From: Kalmusia sp. IMI 367209
Taxonomy: Eukaryota; Ascomycota; Dothideomycetes; Pleosporales; Didymosphaeriaceae
Length of the DNA stretch: 64,000 nucleotides
Reading direction: 5' to 3'
NCBI GenBank assembly: GCA_027946365.1
Contig: JAPEUQ010000007.1
Location: 1,736,001-1,800,000, forward strand
Position 1 is the stretch's first letter, and every line of letters starts with the position of its first letter. Both the position numbers and the translations under genes were made by a program. The notes below the pieces were generated by a model. The model was not told the origin of the DNA. It made no database searches and saw nothing but the letters and a program-made list of their open reading frames with translations. Positions 1,600-41,690 of this stretch are shown piece after piece.

Positions 1600-2420
1600 C
1601 GAGGTACAATGAAATTAGTAGTGGCTTTATATTTTAATATTTACAAATCTACTTACTTGCTATACCACCAGGTCTAATAAGAGTAGTAGTAGCATTAAGT
1701 ATTAATACTTATAAGTCTACTTACAATCTACTCCACCGGATATTAAAAGATTAGCTGCAGTTTCATATACTAATATTTGATTACTTACCATCTACACCAT
1801 TTGACACAATAAGGTTAGTAGCAATAGCACATACTAATACTTATAAGTCTGCTTACGTACTATACCACAAGACATAACAAGGTCAGTGACAGTTTTACGT
1901 ACTAATATTTATAGGTCTACTTACTGACTATACCACAAGACATAACAAGATTAGTAGCAGCTTCGTCTTCTTTATTAAGAGGTCTAATTACATCCTACAT
2001 CATCAGACACAACAAGATTAGCGCTAGCTTCGCATGCTATCATTTGCCAGTCTACTTACATACTACGTCACCAGCGCAACAGGATCAGTAAGTAGTGGTT
2101 TCGTATACCAATACTCTCAGGTCTACTTACGAACTATATCCTCAAACATAATAAGTTTAGTAGCAACTTTGCATACTACTATGTGTAGGAACTTCTTACC
2201 ATCTAGAATACCAGACATAATAAGATTAGAAGCAGCTTTGCCTACTAATACCCGTAGGTCTACTTACATCCTACAACATCAAACATAATAAGATTAGGAG
2301 CGGCTTCGCATATTAATATTCGCAAATTGGCTTACCATCTAGAACATCAGATACAACGAGATCAGCAGCAGCTTTGCATGCTGTTACTCGCAATTATACT
2401 TACTTCCTTTGTGACATATT
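1600..2420 (-). repeat. Tandem 67-68 bp repeat, block 2 (about 12 degenerate units)
   Basis: This is the continuation of the array seen at 1-345, with units near 1617, 1687, 1752, 1818, 1885, 1952, 2021, 2088, 2158, 2228, 2296 and 2362. On the minus strand the consensus is GTAAGTAGAC at the start, TACTAATC as branch-like box, and a GTGGTGTAG-like end. A 3-base spacer (ATG, GAT, TAC and similar) separates it from the next GTAAGT. Units differ by many substitutions, yet the splice-like boxes are the best-preserved parts. The short open frames here are by-products of the repeat. Confidence 0.8.
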
Positions 2421-3885
2421 TAATAACCCAGACAACGACTAACATGTTCAACGGCTCACCTTCTACATTATTCCGGTTAGATGGTTTTTTAAGCTACTTG
2501 ACATTTGAACATACCTCAAAGTGACTATCGTTCCACGCCTTTCGGCTCATCTTCGTGACCTTGACCGCAAATAATAGAGGGAAGAAAGTATAATAAGATT
2601 GTGTCGCGCAATCCTGTTACAGTAGGGTTGGGTGAAATGTTTAGCTCGAGCTCGTAAAGGCGGGGTAACCGAGTCGGCTGCTGCCTGAACGATTCTATGA
2701 TGTCTACAACGGTCACTTGATTATGTACATCCAATCATCTGCTAGCCTAAGCTATGGTTGCAAAATGCTAAGCTCAAGCTAATACAGTAAGGTCTATTCT
2801 GATCGAAAGAGGCGCCAAGGTACATTGAAAATGATACGAGGCGCATTGGCCGTTTACCAAGCCCGCCAGACCGGACATAGCCGGAGGCAGCGTCATCATA
2901 TTAACTGCCTTAGAGCATCGGAATATCTAGCCACTGCCGATTCTCTCATCTACCCCAAACCATTGGAAAAACAAAATGAAGTGGCTTTGATGATTCACGC
3001 GACAACTCCTCTCCTAATTTGTTCCATCATTGATTTTGAGACCTACTGACTGCCATCTATTAAGCACATTATACGAATTTGACAACGTTTGCACAGCAGA
3101 TATATACTTACGGTAGCAGTGAATCCTACCCTCATTGTCGCAGTTAATGTGGGAACCGAGCGACAGTGAGTGTGAATACCCTAGTCATGGTAGGGTTTCT
3201 CATTAATTCATTAGACCGTTACGTATAGGGTAAAAAGATCTCAAATTATTGACTGTTATTTAAAAGAACGAAGCAGGAAGGACGATATGAACGAAAATAT
3301 CGCACGCTTAGCTGACGGAATTCTTACCGGTACCGACGAGACAAATTTTGGAGAAATCATTGAGTGGGATGGTTGCGTCTACGTGTTTTGGCTTCTTGAA
3401 TTGAAATCGACCAAGATTAAACGAGACTCAATGTTCGTCACTTGCAAGACTTGAACAATGAAATCATGGGTTCCAAACTAGCTACTATTGGGCAATTGAA
3501 TATCTGCATGAAAGCATGCTGCTCTTCCCATTTGACTGCGGACGTCGTTGAGATCTAGGTCAAGGCAACGGAATTCAGCAAGACCCATGACCTGAAGTCT
3601 CTCGATTGTTACACATGCTTGGACTTTGGCCCCGTATGTTCCATGATAATCTATTGAAAAGGATCTGTGGCTTTGTTTCAAGTTAGCGCGCGCGTCCTGC
3701 ATGCACAGTACTAGCGAATGCCTGAGTGAAGACCTTCGCGATAGTTCGACTAGGCTAAACTGTACTTGGGGGCCACTTCCGGCAATAACTTCTACGCGAC
3801 ACCACCAGGCTGAGCTAACTCTCGTCCGCAATTCTATCAATGCTGTGTTAGCTTGTACAATCACTACAATCCTTCGTTCCGCTCT
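2421..3885. other. Intergenic, no supported gene
   Basis: There are only short open frames. The longest, on the minus strand at 3478-3951, shows at best faint similarity to a copia-type reverse transcriptase and overlaps the start of the PNP_UDP gene. The 5' regulatory region of that gene must lie in the right part. I see nothing else supportable. Confidence 0.6.
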
Positions 3886-3917
3886 CAATAGCGCAATAGC
3901 GCAATAGCGCAATAGCG
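3886..3917 (+). repeat. Short tandem repeat (CAATAGCG)x4
   Basis: Four perfect copies of the 8-mer CAATAGCG run head to tail and end 24 bases before the ATG of the PNP_UDP gene, so they probably lie in its 5' untranslated region or core promoter. Confidence 0.9.
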
Positions 3918-3941
3918 TAGTCGTCACATTACAGCCTAAAG

Positions 3942-5042
3942 ATGGATCCACCTTCTGCAGATGCCTTTACAATTGGCCTTCTATACGTTAAAACTTTGGA
4001 GATGATGGCTATCGGGGCGATGCTAGACGATAGGTACAAATCAATTCCAGTGGCCTATGGGGATGTTAATGAATACACTCTTGGCCGCATTGGTGTTCAT
4101 AACGTTGTCATAGTAGGACCCGCGCGCGGCGAACAAGGTACGGTGGCGACGGCTCAGTTCGTCACAACCATCCGCCTGACGTTCCCCAACGTCACGATCG
4201 GGCTCTTGATAGGAATCGGCGGCGGGATTCCTCGCCCTCCCAAATACGCCGTCCGGCTGGGGGACGTCGTAGTCGGGGCACCAGAGGAAGGCCCAGCAGT
4301 GATTCAGTACGACCTTGGAAAGAGAACCGTAGATGGATTCGAGGTCACCAGAAGCGTTGCCGGACCGCCAGCTTTACTTCGTAAGGTAGTCAACAAGATC
4401 ATAGGAGCCATGAGCTGGCAAACAGAGGAACACGACATCCTCAAGCCACACCTAGACAGATTCTCACTTTACCCACGGCTTTCTAGAGAGTATCAGAGAC
4501 CGTCAGTTCCGGACCGTCTCTTTCAGTCAACTTTCCTCCACAAGGAGAGCACGGAGTGTGCCTCACACGATGAGCAATTTGAGCAGGTTCGTCCCCTACC
4601 TAATTCGGAACACATCGGTATTCATTATGGGACCATTCTCTCCGGCAACACGCTCATGAAATCTTCGGAAGATCGCGATTTGCTCAGTCAGAAACACAAG
4701 GATGCTTTGTGCTTCGAGATGGAGGCAGCCGGGCTCATGGACGTCTTCCCGTGCCTAGTAATCCGCGGGATCAGTGACTACTCAGATTCGCACAAGAATG
4801 ATGCCTGGCAGAATTATGCCGCCGCGACTGCTGCTGCCTATGCTCGCGAATTTTTGTTGAACATGTCAGAACAAACACCAAGAGCACCTGAACTCTCGAA
4901 GCTGGCGAAAGATAGTAGTTCTGCTCTCACGGACGCGGAGAAATCTCACGAGCGGTCTGTTTTCTCTAATTCGAGCAACAACAGCGGTGTGCAGGTCGTT
5001 CATTACACGGGTAGTATGAAGAATATTTTTGGCATGCGCTAG
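3942..5042 (+). CDS. PNP_UDP-domain (nucleoside-phosphorylase-like) protein with C-terminal amyloid/RHIM-like motif
   Basis: Intronless, 366 residues. Residues 10-305 form a phosphorylase superfamily fold of the type found at the N-terminus of many fungal NLR (STAND) proteins: a glycine-rich GIGGGIP at 91-97, the FEMEAAGLM signature at 258-266, and the IRGISDYSDSHK segment at 274-285, typical of the fungal NLR subgroup. A Ser/Lys-rich linker (about 308-344) leads to N347-x-G-V-Q-V-V-x3-G-S-M-x-N-x-F363, three residues from the end. This resembles RHIM and fungal prion-type signalling motifs. No NB-ARC or NACHT follows; the gene stops, and a TPR-type repeat gene with the same motif at its N-terminus starts 567 bp downstream. 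I infer an effector or enzyme arm activated through the motif. A plain nucleosidase is the alternative. Domain call strong, motif role inferred. Confidence 0.88.
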   Translation: MDPPSADAFTIGLLYVKTLEMMAIGAMLDDRYKSIPVAYGDVNEYTLGRIGVHNVVIVGPARGEQGTVATAQFVTTIRLTFPNVTIGLLIGIGGGIPRPPKYAVRLGDVVVGAPEEGPAVIQYDLGKRTVDGFEVTRSVAGPPALLRKVVNKIIGAMSWQTEEHDILKPHLDRFSLYPRLSREYQRPSVPDRLFQSTFLHKESTECASHDEQFEQVRPLPNSEHIGIHYGTILSGNTLMKSSEDRDLLSQKHKDALCFEMEAAGLMDVFPCLVIRGISDYSDSHKNDAWQNYAAATAAAYAREFLLNMSEQTPRAPELSKLAKDSSSALTDAEKSHERSVFSNSSNNSGVQVVHYTGSMKNIFGMR

Positions 5043-5609
5043 GACGGATAAGAAGTTAAATGCCTGCTTGAGGAAAAGACAGAGATTCGAAAATTTCTTG
5101 AGATGTGTCTTTGCTCAATAATTTTTTTCCCTATCGTTGAGAGCTTGTCAATGATCAGATTCGAGTTAAGCGCCTGTTTGTAGCATTCATGATGTAGCCT
5201 TGCGTACTCCGGTCCGCGTATAATATCTAGCCGCCAGTCTTAGAATGATTCAATATGTTACTATGTTTGCGTTCCGTCTCTCAGAATTGTGCACGCTAAA
5301 CGTAGGTTGTTTCATCTTGGCGCTGGTCACTGAATGACAGAACACGTTGTTACATTGCTCGATAAGCAAAAAAGATCATCAAGGGACAATTTTGTAGCAG
5401 GATGTGCATGGATCCTTCGTTGAAGGTGCTAATTGGTTAAAGGGGCAACGGGTGCGCAGGGTTGTCTGCTTCGCCGTCTTTCCTCCTCAGCTTTCAGCCT
5501 GTTGCGCACTAGGTACCTTCTCACTCTGTAAATGTTGAACACCGCATCTTTCTAGTAAGTTGAAAGTTGCTAGTCTGCTCTTTGCAGTTGACAACTTGAT
5601 CATCCCCTC
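5043..5609. other. Intergenic between the PNP_UDP and TPR genes
   Basis: 567 bp with no open frame of note. It holds the 3' end of the PNP_UDP gene and the promoter of the TPR gene. I see no clear TATA box. The two genes are co-oriented but far enough apart to be separate transcripts. Confidence 0.6.
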
Positions 5610-8600
5610 ATGTCGGCACAGGTGTTGTCACCTCCGACGCTCGGCTCGGGTGATACCGAGAGGGCTGGAGTCCTGGCCGCCACCAACTACGGTCTACAGA
5701 TTGCCTATAACCACGGTTCTGTCTCAAACTACTTCTGCTTTAGTTCTGATGTTGCTCATGAGTGTCATTTCCCTGAGATCTCATCGAAAAGTGACTCGCT
5801 TGACAAGCACATATACAAGAGGATACAGAAGGCGCGTGAACTGTACAATACAAAGCGCTGGGTCTCCGCCAAACCTCTTTTTCAAGAGGCTCTAAATGCG
5901 CCGTATGCCACGCTTGTTGCGACAGAGAGAATCCAACTCCAATACAACCTAGCGCACACGCACTTCGCCTTGGCCGAATTCGATGACGCTGCTCGTCAAT
6001 TCCAAGACGTGCTAGACATCCACCAAGAACGGAACGAGGCTCCAGAACAGACCGTAAACGACAGTCGCTACTGGCTCGCCCGTAGCTTCTACCACCTCGA
6101 ACGACACGCCGATGCGTCGAAAGAGTTGCAACACTTTGTCCGAACACACGACCAAAAAGACACACATGGGGTGGAACAGGTGACAACCGCTCGACTGTGG
6201 CTTGGCCTGACCTTCGAACGCTTAAGTCAGTATAGCCTTGCGAAGGAGCAGCTAGTCAGCGCGTTCGAAACGCAGGCTCAAAATCTCGGGCCGGAAAACC
6301 TAAAGACACTTGCGTGTCGGCACCATCTCGCCAATTTTATGTACAAAAGGAAAGCATACCCTGAGGCACAGGAGCACTTTCAAGCTTTACTGTTGGTTGA
6401 GGACAATCTCAGTGGGCCTGAGAAAGAAGAAGCCACGAGAACACGTTCCATGCTGGCTTTCTGCCTAGCAAAGATCGGAAGCTACGAGGAGGCTGAGCCA
6501 CATTTGAGGCGAGTACTTGCCAGGATGGACTCATTAAGGTACTTGTCATACGAGGAGGTGAGAGACACAGGACTCGTTTGCTATTGGCTTGGTAGGGTCG
6601 CTTTCAACAAGAAGAACGAGCTTTCGGTAACTGAAGCTGGCCACTTGTTCCAACGTGCCTTAAAGATGATATCAGATTCCATAAACCACCCTAGGAAATC
6701 GATGAGAGAGCATGTTGGCCAAGAGTATCGCCGCGGTAATATCGTCAAAGAGAAAAATCATGATGATGATCTGCAAGACGAACTCACGGGGTGTAGATGC
6801 TATCAAGCACACACCATGCGTCTCCAACGCCAGTTCGTTGCTGCTGAGCAAGCATATCGGCAGATCCTCAACACTTCGAGTGTCACCGGACAAGATTATC
6901 TCATTGCTAGCCGCCACGGTCTATCACGAAGCCTCATCGAACAAAAGAAGTTTTCAGAGGCCAAGTCGGTCCTTGAGGAGGTCGTCAGCGTTACAACTCC
7001 ATTAGAAGGATGTCGTCACACTGGGGATGACCTTGGCGCTTGTATGGACGCACTTGGCCAGATACACTTGAGGCTCAAGCAACACTCGCAAGCTCGTGAC
7101 TGCTTCCAGCGGGTGGTTGATGTTACACCTGAAGAGCCAACGCGAGCCTATAGCCAGAGCCGATGTTCCTTAGGTATGGCCTTATTCAGGCTACGGCAGT
7201 TCGAGAATGCCCACTCGCACTTCGAGTACGCATATCAATTTGAGATGAAGAACAATAGGGAGTATTTACTCCAGACCGAGTGCTGGCTTTCATGGTCGCT
7301 GTGTGAAGTTGGCAAATATAGCGAGGCTGAAGCCCATTTGCGGCCTGTATTCACCATACTGCAGAACTCGACTATTTCGAGGGAATCAGATCATTGGTTG
7401 GGATTGAGCCACTTCTACAAAGGTCGCGCCGCGATACACCGTCATAACGTAGCCGAGGCAATCAAGCATCTCCGAATGGCGCAAGCTATGATTGCCAGAT
7501 GCGCAGGGCTGGACAATCCAACGTATCTGGAATGTCGATACCAACTTGCATATTCTCTCTTCTCACAGAATCAAATTGACGAAGCTCGCCTGATATTCGA
7601 AGAGCTGCAGAACATTCCAGAAGACCTAGAGGAACCTTCGCAGAATATCCGCCTTGTTTCAGCTCCATACTGGCTAGGCCGCATATCATTTTGGCAAAAT
7701 AAGGCTAGCGAGGCTCTAGACTACTATACTAAATGCCTCGAGCATATACATGGCGATAAACTCCCTTTCCACATGAACATATCCATCGAATCTGTTCGGT
7801 TATCTCGCGCGAAGAGTCTGCATTTGCTAGGTAGAGATGACGAATGCTCTGAGATCTTGAGAGGTATCCTTGCTGAAGAGAATAATCCTTGTACGGAGCA
7901 GGATCGAATCCCGTTGTATCAAGCGAGCCGCGTGTGGCTCGGTCGCAGTCTACACGGCGCCAAGAGATATGCAGAGGCATACGACTACCTATCTTCGACC
8001 GTCTTAGATCTCGAGAGTAAGCGTGGCTTCGATGACAGTGACACATCGACCAGCCGGGTCTTGTTGGTGGACTGTCTCTCTGAACTCGGTCGACACGATG
8101 AGGCAGCACCACACCTGACCCGACTTAGAACTGTGCAAACCGCAACGCCTATGAATAAGGCCATTGCTAACTATTGGCTCGGGCGCCGATCTTTCAGGAA
8201 TAGTCAATTGGTGCTGGCAGAAGGTTTTTTCAACGACGCGCAAAAGTGGAACGGTCTCAAGAATACTAAGTGGAAACACATGAAAATGGATTGCCAGCAT
8301 TTCCTTGCGCGAATCCAACTACGAGATAAAAAGTATATTCATGCTGATGAGGTCCTCATGGAACTCGCGCGGCAGCAGTACGAGTCTGGTGACATCGCCC
8401 ATGCTGTAGACAATCAATATTGTCTTGGGCGAAGCCTCTACCTACAGCACAAGTACAATACAGCCATTCCCGTATTTGAGAAGATCACAAACGATAATAA
8501 AGTAGGCAGGATAGAGGAATATTCGGTATCCGCGAGCTATCAGTCAATGGGACACTGCCTCTACAGTCAGCAAAAGTTCAAAGAGGCAAAGTCGCACTAC

Positions 8601-10346
8601 GAATTGGCGCTTCAATTCCTTAACACTGATTATGCGAAATTCATATCCCGCTTCTACATCGCACATTGTGATTTCAAGATGGGCTCGTACGAGGAGGCCA
8701 AAGAGCTCTATCAAAGCTGCCTGGAACAGATCGCCAACAGCCCCGAGAGCATCACGAAGGTCCAATTCTGGCTGGGAAAGACTTTTTTCGAGCTCCGTGA
8801 TTGGGTCAAGTCCGATACCTACTTGAGCAGTGCCGTATTTGCTGACCTCAAACCATTGTCTGATACCGAAGCTTTGGAAGCACGCTGTTCCATCGGACGT
8901 GCCCGGATTGCCGCTAAGAACTTTTCGGATGCCGTCCACCCACTCCTTAGCATTCACTCCAAGTTTTCAGAGACCAAACCCCCCGCATATCTTTTGTGCC
9001 GATACTACCTGAGCCTCGCCCAATACGAGCTTGGTCAATTTAAAAAGTCGAGGAGGACATTGCTCCAGTTGCAGACGCATTACCGAGAGCAGAAGTCGGC
9101 TTCGAATTCGACCTCTGATGTCTTAGCAGTCAATTTCCTAATCGCGCGCTGTCTCGTAGGACTCAACGTAAACATCAAAGCCGAGACTGAGTTGGGGCGT
9201 ATCACCAACATTGCCTGGTATAAACTGTGCGCAAAGTCATCCGACCAGACTATCATGCTAGCAGAGTACGACCTTGCACGCATTGCGTATCGAACTGGTC
9301 ATTACTCTCGCGCGGCCGAACTCTTCCAGGAAGCCCTGCTCAAACGGGAAACAGTCCACGTAGACGATTGCAGTCTAGACCGCGTGCAGTGCCAGCGGTA
9401 CCTAGCACTTACATTTCAGGCGTTACAGCAGACTGAGGAGGCTTCACAATTCTACCATAAAGTGCTCGATAGCCAGGCTAGCGGGACAGAACAAGCACCA
9501 CACCATTCACTTCTCGACGTACAGATTTGCCTAAGTAGAACGCTGTATAGCCTAGAGAAGCGGCCAAACTGTGAGGAAATCACCGAAGAAGCTGGAAATT
9601 GGCCAGGGACGTTATCAGGGTCCAGTCATCCTTACAAAGTTCGCCAGCAGATTCTGCTTGCAGACTTAGCTTTTCGTCTCCAGGATTTCCAGCGGGCGGA
9701 GCAGACCTATGCCAGCCTGCTCGCGCTGATGGAGTCTTCAAAAGAGGCTCGAAAGATGACTCCTATTCCGGTCCGCTACCTCCACACCGTATTTGCCGTA
9801 ACTCTTTCAAAATTAAATAATATTCAAGAGGCCCGGATACATGTGCTCAAGGCACTTGAGGCGGACTGCGCCCATGCCCATAGTTGCACGTCCGTCGACG
9901 GTTTCACCGAAGCATTCTTAGACCTTCTGCCTGACAACTGGTCTACATCTTGCCCAGTGCATGCCACCGCGATCAAAGCAAACACCGAACGTCATGTGCT
10001 AGAGAATAAGTACCTAGCCCCACAAGACAATTCGCAAGGGAAAGAAACCGAGATCCAAGCATCACATGGCGATACAAGCCAGACCCAAGGTCCGGGGCAA
10101 AGCAAACAAAAGTGTCGCATCACGGACAGAAAAACTCCAAAACCAGAACAACAAGACGAGCAGGAGCAATCGTCCAGTGTGCAGACTCCCATTTCGGGGG
10201 AGATACGGAACAACGGAGAATTGTCTCGATACGATAACAAGCATACATCCCCTCTAGCAATGGTTCTTAGAGCAGAGGGTACTAAGAGAGCACCACCAAG
10301 GCCTAAGCCGAAACCTGCGCATTTGCAGCGTAAAATTCCGAGCTGA
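5610..10346 (+). CDS. Giant TPR-like repeat protein with N-terminal amyloid/RHIM-like motif
   Basis: One uninterrupted frame of 1578 residues. N26-x-G-L-Q-I-A-x3-G-S-V-x-N-x-F42 matches the C-terminal motif of the upstream PNP_UDP protein position by position. From about residue 70 to 1420 I count close to 29 helical repeats of about 45-50 residues, each with a core such as YWLGR, CRYQLAYSL or WLGRSLH followed by a second helix ending in a Y/F-x-x-A pair. These are diverged TPR repeats. Residues about 1440-1578 are polar and disordered, ending in a basic proline-rich tail (APPRPKPKPAH). I see no Walker A P-loop, so it is not an NLR in the strict sense. The likely role is ligand-sensing or scaffolding, passing a signal to the neighbour by motif templating (inference). 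The first ATG is preferred because the motif lies just behind it. Confidence 0.85.
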   Translation: MSAQVLSPPTLGSGDTERAGVLAATNYGLQIAYNHGSVSNYFCFSSDVAHECHFPEISSKSDSLDKHIYKRIQKARELYNTKRWVSAKPLFQEALNAPYATLVATERIQLQYNLAHTHFALAEFDDAARQFQDVLDIHQERNEAPEQTVNDSRYWLARSFYHLERHADASKELQHFVRTHDQKDTHGVEQVTTARLWLGLTFERLSQYSLAKEQLVSAFETQAQNLGPENLKTLACRHHLANFMYKRKAYPEAQEHFQALLLVEDNLSGPEKEEATRTRSMLAFCLAKIGSYEEAEPHLRRVLARMDSLRYLSYEEVRDTGLVCYWLGRVAFNKKNELSVTEAGHLFQRALKMISDSINHPRKSMREHVGQEYRRGNIVKEKNHDDDLQDELTGCRCYQAHTMRLQRQFVAAEQAYRQILNTSSVTGQDYLIASRHGLSRSLIEQKKFSEAKSVLEEVVSVTTPLEGCRHTGDDLGACMDALGQIHLRLKQHSQARDCFQRVVDVTPEEPTRAYSQSRCSLGMALFRLRQFENAHSHFEYAYQFEMKNNREYLLQTECWLSWSLCEVGKYSEAEAHLRPVFTILQNSTISRESDHWLGLSHFYKGRAAIHRHNVAEAIKHLRMAQAMIARCAGLDNPTYLECRYQLAYSLFSQNQIDEARLIFEELQNIPEDLEEPSQNIRLVSAPYWLGRISFWQNKASEALDYYTKCLEHIHGDKLPFHMNISIESVRLSRAKSLHLLGRDDECSEILRGILAEENNPCTEQDRIPLYQASRVWLGRSLHGAKRYAEAYDYLSSTVLDLESKRGFDDSDTSTSRVLLVDCLSELGRHDEAAPHLTRLRTVQTATPMNKAIANYWLGRRSFRNSQLVLAEGFFNDAQKWNGLKNTKWKHMKMDCQHFLARIQLRDKKYIHADEVLMELARQQYESGDIAHAVDNQYCLGRSLYLQHKYNTAIPVFEKITNDNKVGRIEEYSVSASYQSMGHCLYSQQKFKEAKSHYELALQFLNTDYAKFISRFYIAHCDFKMGSYEEAKELYQSCLEQIANSPESITKVQFWLGKTFFELRDWVKSDTYLSSAVFADLKPLSDTEALEARCSIGRARIAAKNFSDAVHPLLSIHSKFSETKPPAYLLCRYYLSLAQYELGQFKKSRRTLLQLQTHYREQKSASNSTSDVLAVNFLIARCLVGLNVNIKAETELGRITNIAWYKLCAKSSDQTIMLAEYDLARIAYRTGHYSRAAELFQEALLKRETVHVDDCSLDRVQCQRYLALTFQALQQTEEASQFYHKVLDSQASGTEQAPHHSLLDVQICLSRTLYSLEKRPNCEEITEEAGNWPGTLSGSSHPYKVRQQILLADLAFRLQDFQRAEQTYASLLALMESSKEARKMTPIPVRYLHTVFAVTLSKLNNIQEARIHVLKALEADCAHAHSCTSVDGFTEAFLDLLPDNWSTSCPVHATAIKANTERHVLENKYLAPQDNSQGKETEIQASHGDTSQTQGPGQSKQKCRITDRKTPKPEQQDEQEQSSSVQTPISGEIRNNGELSRYDNKHTSPLAMVLRAEGTKRAPPRPKPKPAHLQRKIPS

Positions 10347-39232: not shown

Positions 39233-39551
39233 CGAGGCTGCATAATCGATTGTTGTGAGATGTTGTGGAGAAGTGGACACGTTCTGTGCCCAGTTTATTA
39301 TGCCGATGCCCGCGAGCGGGACCGAGGAGCCCACTAAATAGTCCCCGCACGATCCGCGTTTCAACCGCTATCCGGCTGGAAAGACTACCATTTGCGGTAT
39401 AGAACTAATATTAACCTTCCAGTCTATCGATATTCTATCGATATCAGTTCGCGCCGAGGTCCATATGAATTAACGTTTCACACCTTCTCCAATTGTTCAT
39501 CTATCACGTGTCCAAATATTCACGCGCCCGTGCGCTATTCACGCTGTCACC
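39233..39551. promoter_or_regulatory. Shared divergent promoter, TF gene / DUF2264 gene
   Basis: 319 bp drive both genes. CCG/CGG triplets lie at about 39350-39375 (CCGCTATCCGG), as expected for zinc-cluster regulators. A direct repeat of CTATCGATAT follows at 39424-39444. Auto-regulation and co-regulation of the two genes is plausible. Confidence 0.55.
39424..39444. promoter_or_regulatory. Direct repeat CTATCGATAT x2, candidate operator
   Basis: Two perfect 10-bp copies, at 39424-39433 and 39435-39444, are separated by one base; each contains the palindrome ATCGAT. They lie 108 bases before the DUF2264 ATG and 192 bases from the regulator ATG. An 11-bp spacing puts both copies on the same helix face. 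Confidence 0.45.
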
Positions 39552-41690
39552 ATGCCACCGCTTGGGCGGTTCTCCGACAACGCTTTCCAAACACAAAATG
39601 ACTTCAAAACCGCGTGTCTATCTCTTCTCCGCGCGTTGAAACCGTATCAATCTCCCGGTGGAGCTCGTATACGACTCCCATTGGTGACAGGCACTCACTT
39701 TGATGACATTGCAGCTCAGCTCGAAGGATTTGCCCGACCACTATGGGCAATTGGCGCACTGCTTCACGGTTCTTGTCTTACGACTGATGAGTATGAAGAG
39801 CTAGCTGAACCATACGTGCGTGGTCTGGCCAATGGCACGAATCCGGATCATGCTGAGTATTGGGGACCCGTTGTGGTGCGAGATCAGCGGATGGTCGAAA
39901 TGGAAATCATTTCTTTCGCTCTACTTGCAGCGCCCGATGCTATGTTCCATCGGCAGACTCAACAAGCTCAAGTGAACATTCGGGACTGGTTGAAGACACT
40001 TAATGAGAAAGATTTTCCGGTTACGAATTGGCTCTGGTTTCGAGTGATGACAAATTTGGCGCTGATCAAGGTGTGTGGCGTGCCTTATGATGATGTGAAG
40101 GAGTACATGAAAGAAGACCTTGATCAGATGGAAAATTTTTACTTGGACGAGGGTTGGTCCGCTGATGGATTTTGGACCGAGGAGGGACGACAAGCAGATT
40201 ACTACTCTGGTAGTTTCGCAATTCAGTTTTCACAGCTACTGTACATGAAGATGGCTCAAGACTTTGATTCAAATCGCTGCCATAGATTCTGCGAAAGAGC
40301 GCTTTCATTCGCATCATCCTTTTGGCGGTACTTCGATGAAAATGGTAAGCATACACCTCGCCATGAAGGGATTTCAAATGGTCGTTCGATCCAATATTAA
40401 CACGCTATAGGCGCCGCAATTCCGTTCGGACGCAGCCTTACCTACCGTTTCGCATTTGCTGGATTCTGGTCCGCGGTCGCTTTTGCAGAAGTGGATCTCC
40501 CAGCACCACTGAACGACTGGGGTATAGTCAAGGGTTTATTAATGCGCCACTTCCGCTGGTGGAGTAAAAAATCCGATATGTTCAATATTGATGGCACCTT
40601 AACGATCGGGTTTGCCTATCCTAACATGTATATGAGTGAAGACTACAACTCACCTCAATCGCCGTACTGGGCAATGAAATCTTTCGTTGCCCTTGGCCTC
40701 CAGTCAGACCACCCCTTCTGGACGGCAGAGGAGAAACCGTTACCTGTTGGCGAGATGAAGCTCACAACTCTGGTTAAGCCTCCTTTGCAGATCGTGTGCC
40801 ATACAAAGCATCACCACTTCCTACTTTCGAGTGGGCAGTTCTGTCCTTGGCCTCTAAAAGCAACGGAAGCCAAGTATGGCAAATTCGCATATTCGTCACA
40901 TTTCGGATTTAGTGTACCCACAGGACCTCTGATACAACAAATAGCACCGGACAGTACACTCGCGCTGAGCAAAGATGGAGGCGATACATGGCGCGTACCT
41001 TGGAAGGTGTCTGACCATCGATTTGAAACCGTCTCGCTAGTCAAAGATGGACATGTCATCGAACAAATTCCCGTTCTCAGCAGCGTTTGGAAGCCATGGA
41101 GAGATGCGGATATTAAAGTCAGGACAAGGCTCATTGCTCCTTGCCAACGATGGCCGGACTGGTATGTTCGAGTGCATGAGATTATGAATTTGGGAACGTC
41201 TACGACCACACTACAGGCGGTACAAGGTGGTTTCGCCATTCAAGGACGCAAACAGGAACGAGAAGGGGTGCTGTCTTCGTTCACCGAAAGTGCTGAATTA
41301 TTCTCAAAGCGCGGTGAAAATGCTTTCGCTGAAGGGACGCAACAGCTTTCTACAGGCGCGCTCATATCCTCTAATGCCGGCGCAAGTGGAATTAGGCACA
41401 TCTTCCCCGCGAATGGGCTATCGCAGTATAACGGCGAAGTGCTAAAGCCTGACTCAAATACTAATCTTATATGGCAGAGGACATTGATTCCTACAATGAA
41501 CATGCAAACGCAACCGATACCAGCAAGTTCAAACGTGATCATTGTTTCGGCTGTATTTTCGATTGGTCGAAGAAATGGGCTTGAGAGGGAATATGACGGC
41601 ATTGACATCGGGCAAAGATGGGAAGACGTTCCTCCCGTACACTTCCAGCATGACGAAACGCGAACGGTGGAGCATATTCTATTAGCATAA
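39552..41690 (+). CDS. DUF2264-family protein, putative carbohydrate-active
   Basis: Exons 39552-40344 and 40411-41690 give 690 residues. It matches the DUF2264 layout over nearly its whole length: an N-terminal all-helical part with FARPLWAIGALLHG near 58, EYWGPVVVRDQRMVEMEIIS, NWLWFRVMTNLALIKVCG and DGFWTEEGRQADYYSG, then across the intron GAAIPFGRSLTYRFAFAGFW and SPYWAMKSFVALGLQSDHPF, and a beta-rich C-terminal part. The fold resembles alpha/alpha toroid polysaccharide lyases and hydrolases, and bacterial genes of this family sit in pectin or uronate loci. No signal peptide, so it is probably intracellular. Its neighbour GH88 also acts on short unsaturated uronides, which supports a role in oligosaccharide breakdown. 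The reaction itself is not known to me. Confidence 0.85.

What the first reader, a model, noticed from the sequence alone, without database searches (positions are those of the whole stretch)
4980..5735. Matching amyloid/RHIM-like motif at the facing ends of two adjacent genes
The PNP_UDP protein ends with N347-x-G-V-Q-V-V-x3-G-S-M-x-N-x-F363. The TPR-like protein begins with N26-x-G-L-Q-I-A-x3-G-S-V-x-N-x-F42. N, G, Q, G, S, N and F are identical at the same spacing, and the remaining core positions are both hydrophobic. Known fungal effector/receptor pairs (HET-S/NWD2 type) place one copy of a prion-type motif in each of two neighbouring genes, and RHIM motifs share the V-Q-V-like core. Here the same logic joins a PNP_UDP enzyme-like domain to a large repeat protein. 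The combination looks like an amyloid-signalling pair that I do not recognise as described.
Basis: partly seen in the sequence, partly recalled or inferred. Interest (0 to 1): 0.92.

Follow-up and report, generated by a model that had tools for sequence, protein, structure and literature searches.

The report
Fungal prion-motif gene pair without NLR
Two neighbouring fungal genes, a nucleoside-cleaving type of enzyme and a large repeat protein, carry matching copies of a known prion-like signalling motif, and the presumed sensor lacks the switch domain seen in the published pairs we looked at, which makes an open question about amyloid signalling testable.

Summary
It is not chance: all 17 TPR homologues found keep an N-terminal version, many related PNPs end in the canonical fungal PP motif (Pfam Ses_B), and 8 of 17 TPR homologues share a contig length with a listed PNP homologue. 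The motif is not new: PP, the fungal RHIM-like amyloid motif, was named in 2012 and forms prions in Podospora; PNP/NLR amyloid pairs are in print. What none of my eight paper searches listed is the receptor: no NACHT or NB-ARC found, TPRs starting about 20 residues after the motif. Best reading: a PP amyloid pair in which a NOD-less TPR sensor nucleates the PNP tail and activates a nucleosidase. A 2021 review asks whether fungal signalling amyloids exist outside NLR pathways; this is a candidate. Against it: both window copies lack the second core glycine, motifs do not covary within pairs, amyloid formation is untested.

The parts
3942..5042 (+). PNP_UDP (MTAN-like nucleoside phosphorylase/nucleosidase) protein, 366 aa, no intron seen; presumed effector
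   Evidence: PF01048 26.9 bits, cutoff 25.1 (the genome-wide PF01048 search did not list this copy); AF2 model mean pLDDT 76, best PDB matches MTAN/futalosine hydrolase; 119 homologues listed of 7984 hits
4881..5039 (+). C-terminal tail (residues 314-366) predicted disordered, carrying the motif
   Evidence: pLDDT under 50 for residues 314-366
4980..5030 (+). effector-side PP-type motif NSGVQVVHYTGSMKNIF (residues 347-363); second core G replaced by V
   Evidence: profile from homologous PNP tails 20.2 bits; no Ses_B call by Pfam for this copy
5043..5609 (.). 567-bp intergenic region between the two co-oriented genes
5610..10346 (+). TPR-only protein, 1578 aa, single open frame, presumed NOD-less receptor
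   Evidence: no NACHT/NB-ARC match, no Walker A; model of residues 1-656 all-helical from residue 63
5685..5735 (+). receptor-side PP-type motif NYGLQIAYNHGSVSNYF (residues 26-42); second core G replaced by A
   Evidence: Ses_B 16.2 bits in hmmscan and 21.5 bits in the genome search, both under the 23.2 cutoff

Best explanation
A two-gene PP-type (RHIM-like) amyloid signalling pair. The TPR protein senses a ligand or damage through its long TPR solenoid. Clustering of several copies, by a multivalent ligand or TPR-TPR contacts because there is no NACHT/NB-ARC to drive it, brings the N-terminal PP motifs together and nucleates a short amyloid. This templates the matching motif on the disordered tail of the PNP protein. 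Assembly of the PNP domains turns on a nucleosidase, perhaps one that cleaves ATP as related PNP immune effectors do, and the hypha shuts down or dies. Shown: the motif pair, its conservation in both partners, contig sharing in part of the family, co-divergence, the predicted PNP fold, no detectable NOD. Inferred: amyloid formation, templating, direction of signalling, substrate, trigger and outcome.
For: Matching motifs at the facing ends. The N-terminal motif is in all 18 TPR family members and more conserved than its flanks. PNP tails cross-detect TPR N-termini. Pfam's PP model is matched (E up to 0.1) in 19 of 35 PNPs that I chose for alignment from the 120 listed. Eight of 17 TPR homologues have the same longest-contig length as a listed PNP homologue, two of them with consecutive locus tags, E0Z10_g9350/9351 and NPX13_g7750/7751. 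PNP and TPR distances agree over these 8 pairs plus the window, r = 0.88, 0 of 10000 permutations as high. All 9 paired PNPs fall in one 24-row clade of the 119-row tree, SH-aLRT 100. In the pair P0036/P0014 both partners lack the GxQ core yet share FGDNHGNITNHF / VGFNHGTISNYF, 0 of 150 shuffles as high. The same genome holds an ordinary PP system: HeLo-PP beside a PP-bearing frame and a TPR frame. The last third of the PNP matches the PADLOC 'PN-superfamily' effector, 46.8 bits.
Against: No amyloid or interaction experiment. Both window copies lack the second G of the GxQxG core (VQVV and LQIA), and neither reaches Pfam's PP cutoff. Receptor and effector motifs differ as groups: after Q-x, G stands in 37 of 40 PNP tails but in 1 of the 15 Q-bearing TPR motifs. 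Motif similarity was not higher within pairs than between them: 42.4 against 43.5, 108 of 120 permutations as high, 5 pairs, P0036/P0014 left out, unlike the sigma clusters of PMC3321046. Scored as 12-mers, some pairs are weak: 4 of 150 and 3 of 150 shuffles as high for P0025/P0007 and P0027/P0006, and for the latter another stretch of the TPR protein scored as high. Co-divergence is also expected from shared descent of two unrelated genes. Three of the eight PNP partners are truncated records without a tail. Synteny outside the window rests on contig lengths and locus tags; gene order and strand were not seen. Without a NOD the usual trigger of nucleation is missing.
Confidence: 0.6

Rival explanations
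1. The TPR protein is an adaptor, scaffold or brake. A NOD-bearing PP receptor elsewhere in the genome (the TPR protein on C1, NB-ARC-type by my reading, or the NACHT-WD40 protein on C25) starts the amyloid and the TPR protein relays, concentrates or caps it. The pathway would still depend on an NLR.
For: The genome carries two other N-terminal PP motifs, on C1 and C25, the latter directly upstream of NACHT and WD40 frames. [quoted passage not shown]
Against: In the window the TPR and PNP genes are neighbours, and homologues appear linked and co-diverge. No further N.G.Q.{5}G motif lies in the window, and none of 10 other long frames scanned (of 25 frames of 230 aa or more) matched a NOD domain. 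A brake would not obviously need a TPR array of 1000-1500 residues.
Confidence: 0.2
2. The motifs are a non-amyloid docking or scaffolding element: the TPR protein simply binds the PNP tail, for example to hold the enzyme.
For: Conservation and co-divergence would also fit docking; the window copies deviate from the PP/RHIM core.
Against: The same motif class in other fungal proteins forms prions and fibrils (PMC7885112, abstract and passages). Both partners carry the same motif, as self-templating needs.
Confidence: 0.12
3. The TPR gene is a truncated NLR, or its gene model misses a NOD exon.
For: PP-NB-ARC-TPR (PNT1) is a known architecture and loss of the middle would give this one.
Against: The open frame of 1584 codons begins 6 codons before the ATG; helices start at residue 63 in the model; none of the 17 homologues has PF00931 or PF05729 in its precomputed domains; after the family, scores fall from 782 to 109 bits, and of the 45 further proteins listed 2 show PF00931 or PF05729 (P0180, P0184; two domain lists were cut in the output).
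Confidence: 0.04
4. Chance similarity of two short N/G-rich ends.
For: Only 17 residues, 7 identities; some pairs score modestly as 12-mers.
Against:: 1 of 2000 shuffles; family-wide conservation; decoys.
Confidence: 0.02

Closest known systems
PP-motif NLR signalosomes: PNT1/HELLP (Podospora anserina), CgPNT1/CgHELLP/CgSBP (Chaetomium globosum)
   Same: PP motif at the effector C-terminus and the receptor N-terminus, adjacent genes, TPRs in PNT1 (PMC7885112, passages; PMC7889193, passages)
   Different: Receptor here has no detectable NB-ARC; effector is a PNP enzyme, not a HeLo-like protein or putative lipase; core G is lost on both sides in this species
UDP-phosphorylase/STAND pairs (sigma type, 2012) and PUASM PNP_UDP/NLR pairs (2022)
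   Same: PNP_UDP effector with a C-terminal amyloid motif beside a receptor with the same motif at its N-terminus (PMC3321046, passages; PMC9815663, sections 19 and 24)
   Different: Motif there is sigma, HRAM3 or PUASM (FxGxGxQxxGxGxF); receptors there are STAND/NLR proteins
Mammalian RHIM proteins such as ZBP1 and TRIF (domain layout recalled)
   Same: RHIM-like motif on sensors or adaptors without a NOD (recalled; the list of RHIM proteins from the abstract of PMC9444067 in the listing)
   Different: No homology outside the motif was looked for; downstream partners there are kinases
PNP ATP nucleosidase immune effectors (Detocs)
   Same: PNP-fold immune effector; the fungal PNP_UDP domain is linked to it in PMC10197012 (passage); Detocs described in PMC11249213 (glossary passage)
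   Different: Substrate of this protein is unknown; Detocs is a three-gene two-component system of bacteria
Fungal CHAT-TPR protease beside gasdermin
   Same: Repeat-bearing sensor gene beside its effector gene; only a small subset of those sensors are NLRs (PMC12881547, passage)
   Different: Signal there is proteolysis, not amyloid

Membership tests
PP amyloid motif family | NxGxQxGxN core (PMC9815663) | tested here: inconclusive
   Window: NxGVQVV and NxGLQIAxN, second G absent in both. Many related PNP tails have the full core.
PP amyloid motif family | Match to Pfam PF17046 over its cutoff | tested here: not met
   For the window copies: TPR side 16.2 and 21.5 bits, under the 23.2 cutoff; PNP side not called. 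Homologues: matched at E up to 0.1 in 19 of 35 chosen PNPs
PP amyloid motif family | Matched copies at effector C-terminus and receptor N-terminus of adjacent genes | tested here: met
   In the window.
PP amyloid motif family | Forms amyloid or prion | not testable with these tools
   Needs ThT or foci assays
Fungal NLR signalosome (PNT1/HELLP type) | NACHT or NB-ARC domain in the receptor | tested here: not met
   None by Pfam, precomputed domains, Walker-A scan or model of residues 1-656
Fungal NLR signalosome (PNT1/HELLP type) | C-terminal superstructure-forming repeats | tested here: met
   TPR_12 185.7 bits, TPR_10 best stretch at 1221-1252; helical repeats in the model of residues 1-656
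RHIM | G-(I,V)-Q-(I,V)-G core (PMC7885112) | tested here: not met
   GVQVV and GLQIA in the window
PUASM | FxGxGxQxxGxGxF (PMC9815663) | tested here: not met
   Not in either terminus, by reading
PNP/UDP nucleosidase (MTAN-like) fold | Fold and conserved active-site residues | tested here: met
   Predicted model: Foldseek E 3.5e-13 to 4bmx; E20 and E261 nearly invariant, D279 invariant in 35 rows; their role as MTAN catalytic residues is recalled
ATP nucleosidase effector | Cleaves ATP | not testable with these tools
   Only a partial PADLOC 'PN-superfamily' match, residues 223-305, 46.8 bits

The most novel reading that the evidence does not exclude
An NLR-independent amyloid signalling pathway in fungi, kept as a linked pair in Xylariales and Diaporthales, with the TPR partner also seen in Lophiotrema (Pleosporales): a NOD-less TPR sensor, built like a RHIM sensor and not like an NLR, switches on a nucleosidase through a RHIM-like PP amyloid. 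It would answer the question posed in PMC7889193 (section 10) of whether fungal signalling amyloids exist outside NLR pathways.
Probability: 0.5. Interest if true: 0.85.

Novelty: new variant of a known kind. Interest (0 to 1): 0.7.

Why it matters
In the passages and sections I saw, the fungal amyloid signalling receptors are NLRs, partly because the searches were designed that way, as PMC7889193 says of its own section (section 10). A conserved pair with a NOD-less receptor would show that the amyloid relay does not need a nucleotide switch, would bring fungal PP signalling closer in layout to animal RHIM signalling, and supplies defined peptides to test.

Tried and rejected
Rejected: chance; PUASM or sigma as the motif class (by reading); a hidden NOD; DNA-level tandem repeats in the TPR gene as in highly variable NLR repeats (none at score 40 or more).

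The PNP list shows 120 of 7984 hits, window protein included, so TPR homologues without a partner in it are not evidence of absence. The tree used 119 of 120 PNP rows (P0134, 201 aa, dropped), with the tails cut off; the 'paired' label is known only for 9 rows, needs 7 changes on the tree (shuffled mean 8.8, 4 of 500 as low), and unlabelled rows may be paired too. The family-count table shows the 25 most frequent of 58 families only.

Not in print: eight paper searches, six on amyloid motifs and two on nucleosidase effectors, in an open-access library; the listings show 5 to 20 papers of up to 8277 matching; none listed title or opening abstract tells of a NOD-less PP or RHIM-like receptor in fungi. 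Papers were seen as passages or single sections, none as a whole text. Subscription papers, among them the 2016 PNAS paper on PP and the 2020 J Mol Biol paper on bacterial motifs, were not read.

Full report
What is there. The window lies in a 42.8-Mb genome that is fungal by its genes and closest protein relatives. Two genes on the + strand are 567 bp apart: a 366-aa PNP_UDP protein (3942-5042) and a 1578-aa TPR protein (5610-10346), each one open frame. The PNP ends with NSGVQVVHYTGSMKNIF at residues 347-363; the TPR protein has NYGLQIAYNHGSVSNYF at residues 26-42.

Chance. Shuffling the two termini gave the observed score in 1 of 2000 trials, and N.G.Q.{5}G occurs nowhere else in the six frames of the window. 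Homologues settle it. Two searches found 17 relatives of the TPR protein (14, 3 more), after which scores fall from 782 to 109 bits. All 17 carry the motif near the N-terminus: 14 as N-Y-G-x-Q, and three (P0012 Diaporthe, P0013 Cryphonectria, P0014 without a name) without the Q. Over the 18 sequences the motif has a mean majority fraction of 0.81, the residues before it 0.39, those just after it 0.48, residues 67-300 0.68. A profile of 40 PNP tails, taken by regular expression from the 119 listed PNP homologues and without the window protein, ranked 17 of 18 TPR N-termini above all 307 decoys, 12 of them over the inclusion threshold; P0013 was missed. As 12-mers the six pairs with both ends intact are uneven: 0 to 4 of 150 shuffles as high.

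Which motif. Many PNP homologues end in the canonical fungal PP motif, for example NSGVQVGHNTGNMTNTF. Pfam PF17046 'Ses_B', which is PP (PMC8086366, passage; 'misnamed SesB', PMC12261475, section 12), matches 19 of 35 PNPs chosen for alignment. PP was described in 2012 as FxGx(x)NxGLQLxGxNxGxL (PMC3321046, passages), resembles RHIM, and forms prions that partly cross-seed with human RHIMs (PMC7885112, abstract and passages). The window copies are off-consensus: VQVV and LQIA instead of VQVG. The TPR side scores below Pfam's cutoff and the PNP side is not called. The two sides also differ as groups: G follows Q-x in 37 of 40 PNP tails and in 1 of 15 Q-bearing TPR motifs.

Is the pair a unit? 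Eight of 17 TPR homologues have a longest contig of exactly the same length as one of the 119 listed PNP homologues (P0003/P0088, P0005/P0029, P0006/P0027, P0007/P0025, P0011/P0039, P0013/P0045, P0014/P0036, P0016/P0042); for two the locus tags are consecutive. Three of these PNP records (P0039, P0045, P0088) are truncated and show no tail. The named ones are Xylariales (Nemania, Xylaria, Hypoxylon) and Diaporthales (Cryphonectria); for Lophiotrema, Pleosporales, only the TPR protein was seen. Gene order elsewhere was not seen. Over these 8 pairs plus the window, PNP and TPR distances correlate at r = 0.88, 0 of 10000 permutations as high; shared descent alone would also give a correlation. 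All 9 paired PNPs fall in one 24-row clade of the 119-row PNP tree with SH-aLRT 100, though not in one smaller clade (7 label changes). In the pair P0036/P0014 both sides lack the GxQ half and still share FGDNHGNITNHF / VGFNHGTISNYF, 7 of 12 identical. Against a simple specificity story, 17-mer similarity is not higher within pairs than between pairs (5 pairs, P0036/P0014 left out, 108 of 120 permutations as high).

What the receptor lacks. The amyloid receptors described in the passages I saw are NLRs. Here no NACHT, NB-ARC or other NTPase domain was found in P0002, nor PF00931 or PF05729 in the precomputed domains of the 17 homologues; the family-count table shows only the 25 most frequent of 58 families and none of those is a NOD. 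No conserved Walker A was found; one G-x4-GKT in P0008 lies in a TPR segment. The model of residues 1-656 (mean pLDDT 81) is weak to about residue 60, then all-helical with no strand, and matches TPR and other helical-repeat scaffolds. The gap from the motif to the first of these helices is about 20 residues.

The effector. The predicted PNP domain folds like MTAN and futalosine hydrolase (TM-scores by target up to 0.78 among the 50 listed rows) with acidic positions that I recall as catalytic in MTAN kept. The tail 314-366 is disordered in the model. Residues 223-305 match the PADLOC 'PN-superfamily' effector. PNP_UDP domains are frequent NLR effectors in fungi, and the bacterial immune PNP is an ATP nucleosidase (PMC10197012, passage). 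An older guess is MTA/SAH nucleosidase (PMC4986451, passage). I favour nucleotide depletion but cannot name the substrate.

The rest of the genome. Five PF17046 matches at E up to 10, the window's own included. C1 has a HeLo protein ending in PP (34.4 bits) head-to-head with a PP-bearing 66-aa frame (25.2 bits) followed by a 725-aa TPR frame with DUF7779; its NB-ARC identity is my reading of the sequence, not a Pfam call. C25 has PP (22.7 bits, just under the cutoff) in a 96-aa frame directly upstream of NACHT and WD40 frames. So ordinary PP-NLRs coexist with the NOD-less pair and could talk to it: the main rival.

Verdict. Known motif, known effector type, known two-gene logic, a receptor architecture that I did not find described, conserved in two orders as a linked pair and in a third by its TPR partner. 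PMC7889193 (section 10, read in full) asks whether signalling amyloids exist in fungal pathways not dependent on NLRs. This pair is a direct candidate. Eight paper searches did not list such a receptor; the library holds open-access papers only and each listing is capped.

Noticed in passing
L033 (G000:C1:146500-155500), 4867-6064: Ordinary PP system in the same genome: HeLo protein ending in FSGSHNTGVQIGHNSGTMSGFTFG, head-to-head with a PP-bearing first frame (NFAGARNQGLQIGDNTG) of a TPR protein.
   Followed up: partly
L034 (G000:C25:1264000-1272500), 1652-6234: PP motif (SNSGVQVGNNYGTLHNTF) directly upstream of NACHT and WD40 frames, with a HET-domain frame (50 bits) next to it on the other strand.
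   Followed up: partly
L034 15-918 (+): Frames with long GTQGTQGTQG runs (collagen-like low complexity).
   Followed up: no
G000:C26:1655569-1656459 (L024): PNP protein with a Q/G-rich tail LTFQNFGSVQGRNVLQGQTMYGSANTLNF that looks sigma-like by eye; no Pfam match.
   Followed up: partly
window 5736-5765 (residues 43-52 of the TPR protein): C-x(6)-H-x-C just after the motif; both cysteines and the histidine stand in 10 of 18 family rows (spacing differs in two) and not in P0012-P0014; possible metal or redox site.
   Followed up: no
window 1703-1964 and 2105-2379: Two arrays of a 68-bp repeat; the first lies in an AT-rich stretch (1-2000, 31% GC) before the PNP gene.
   Followed up: no
window 39474-41690: A DUF2264 protein lies in two frames of the same phase separated by one stop codon (intron or interrupted gene).
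   Followed up: no
P0028, P0030 (536 aa): Metagenome PNP-PP proteins with an NPHP3_N-like stretch before the PNP; may be a fused prediction.
   Followed up: no
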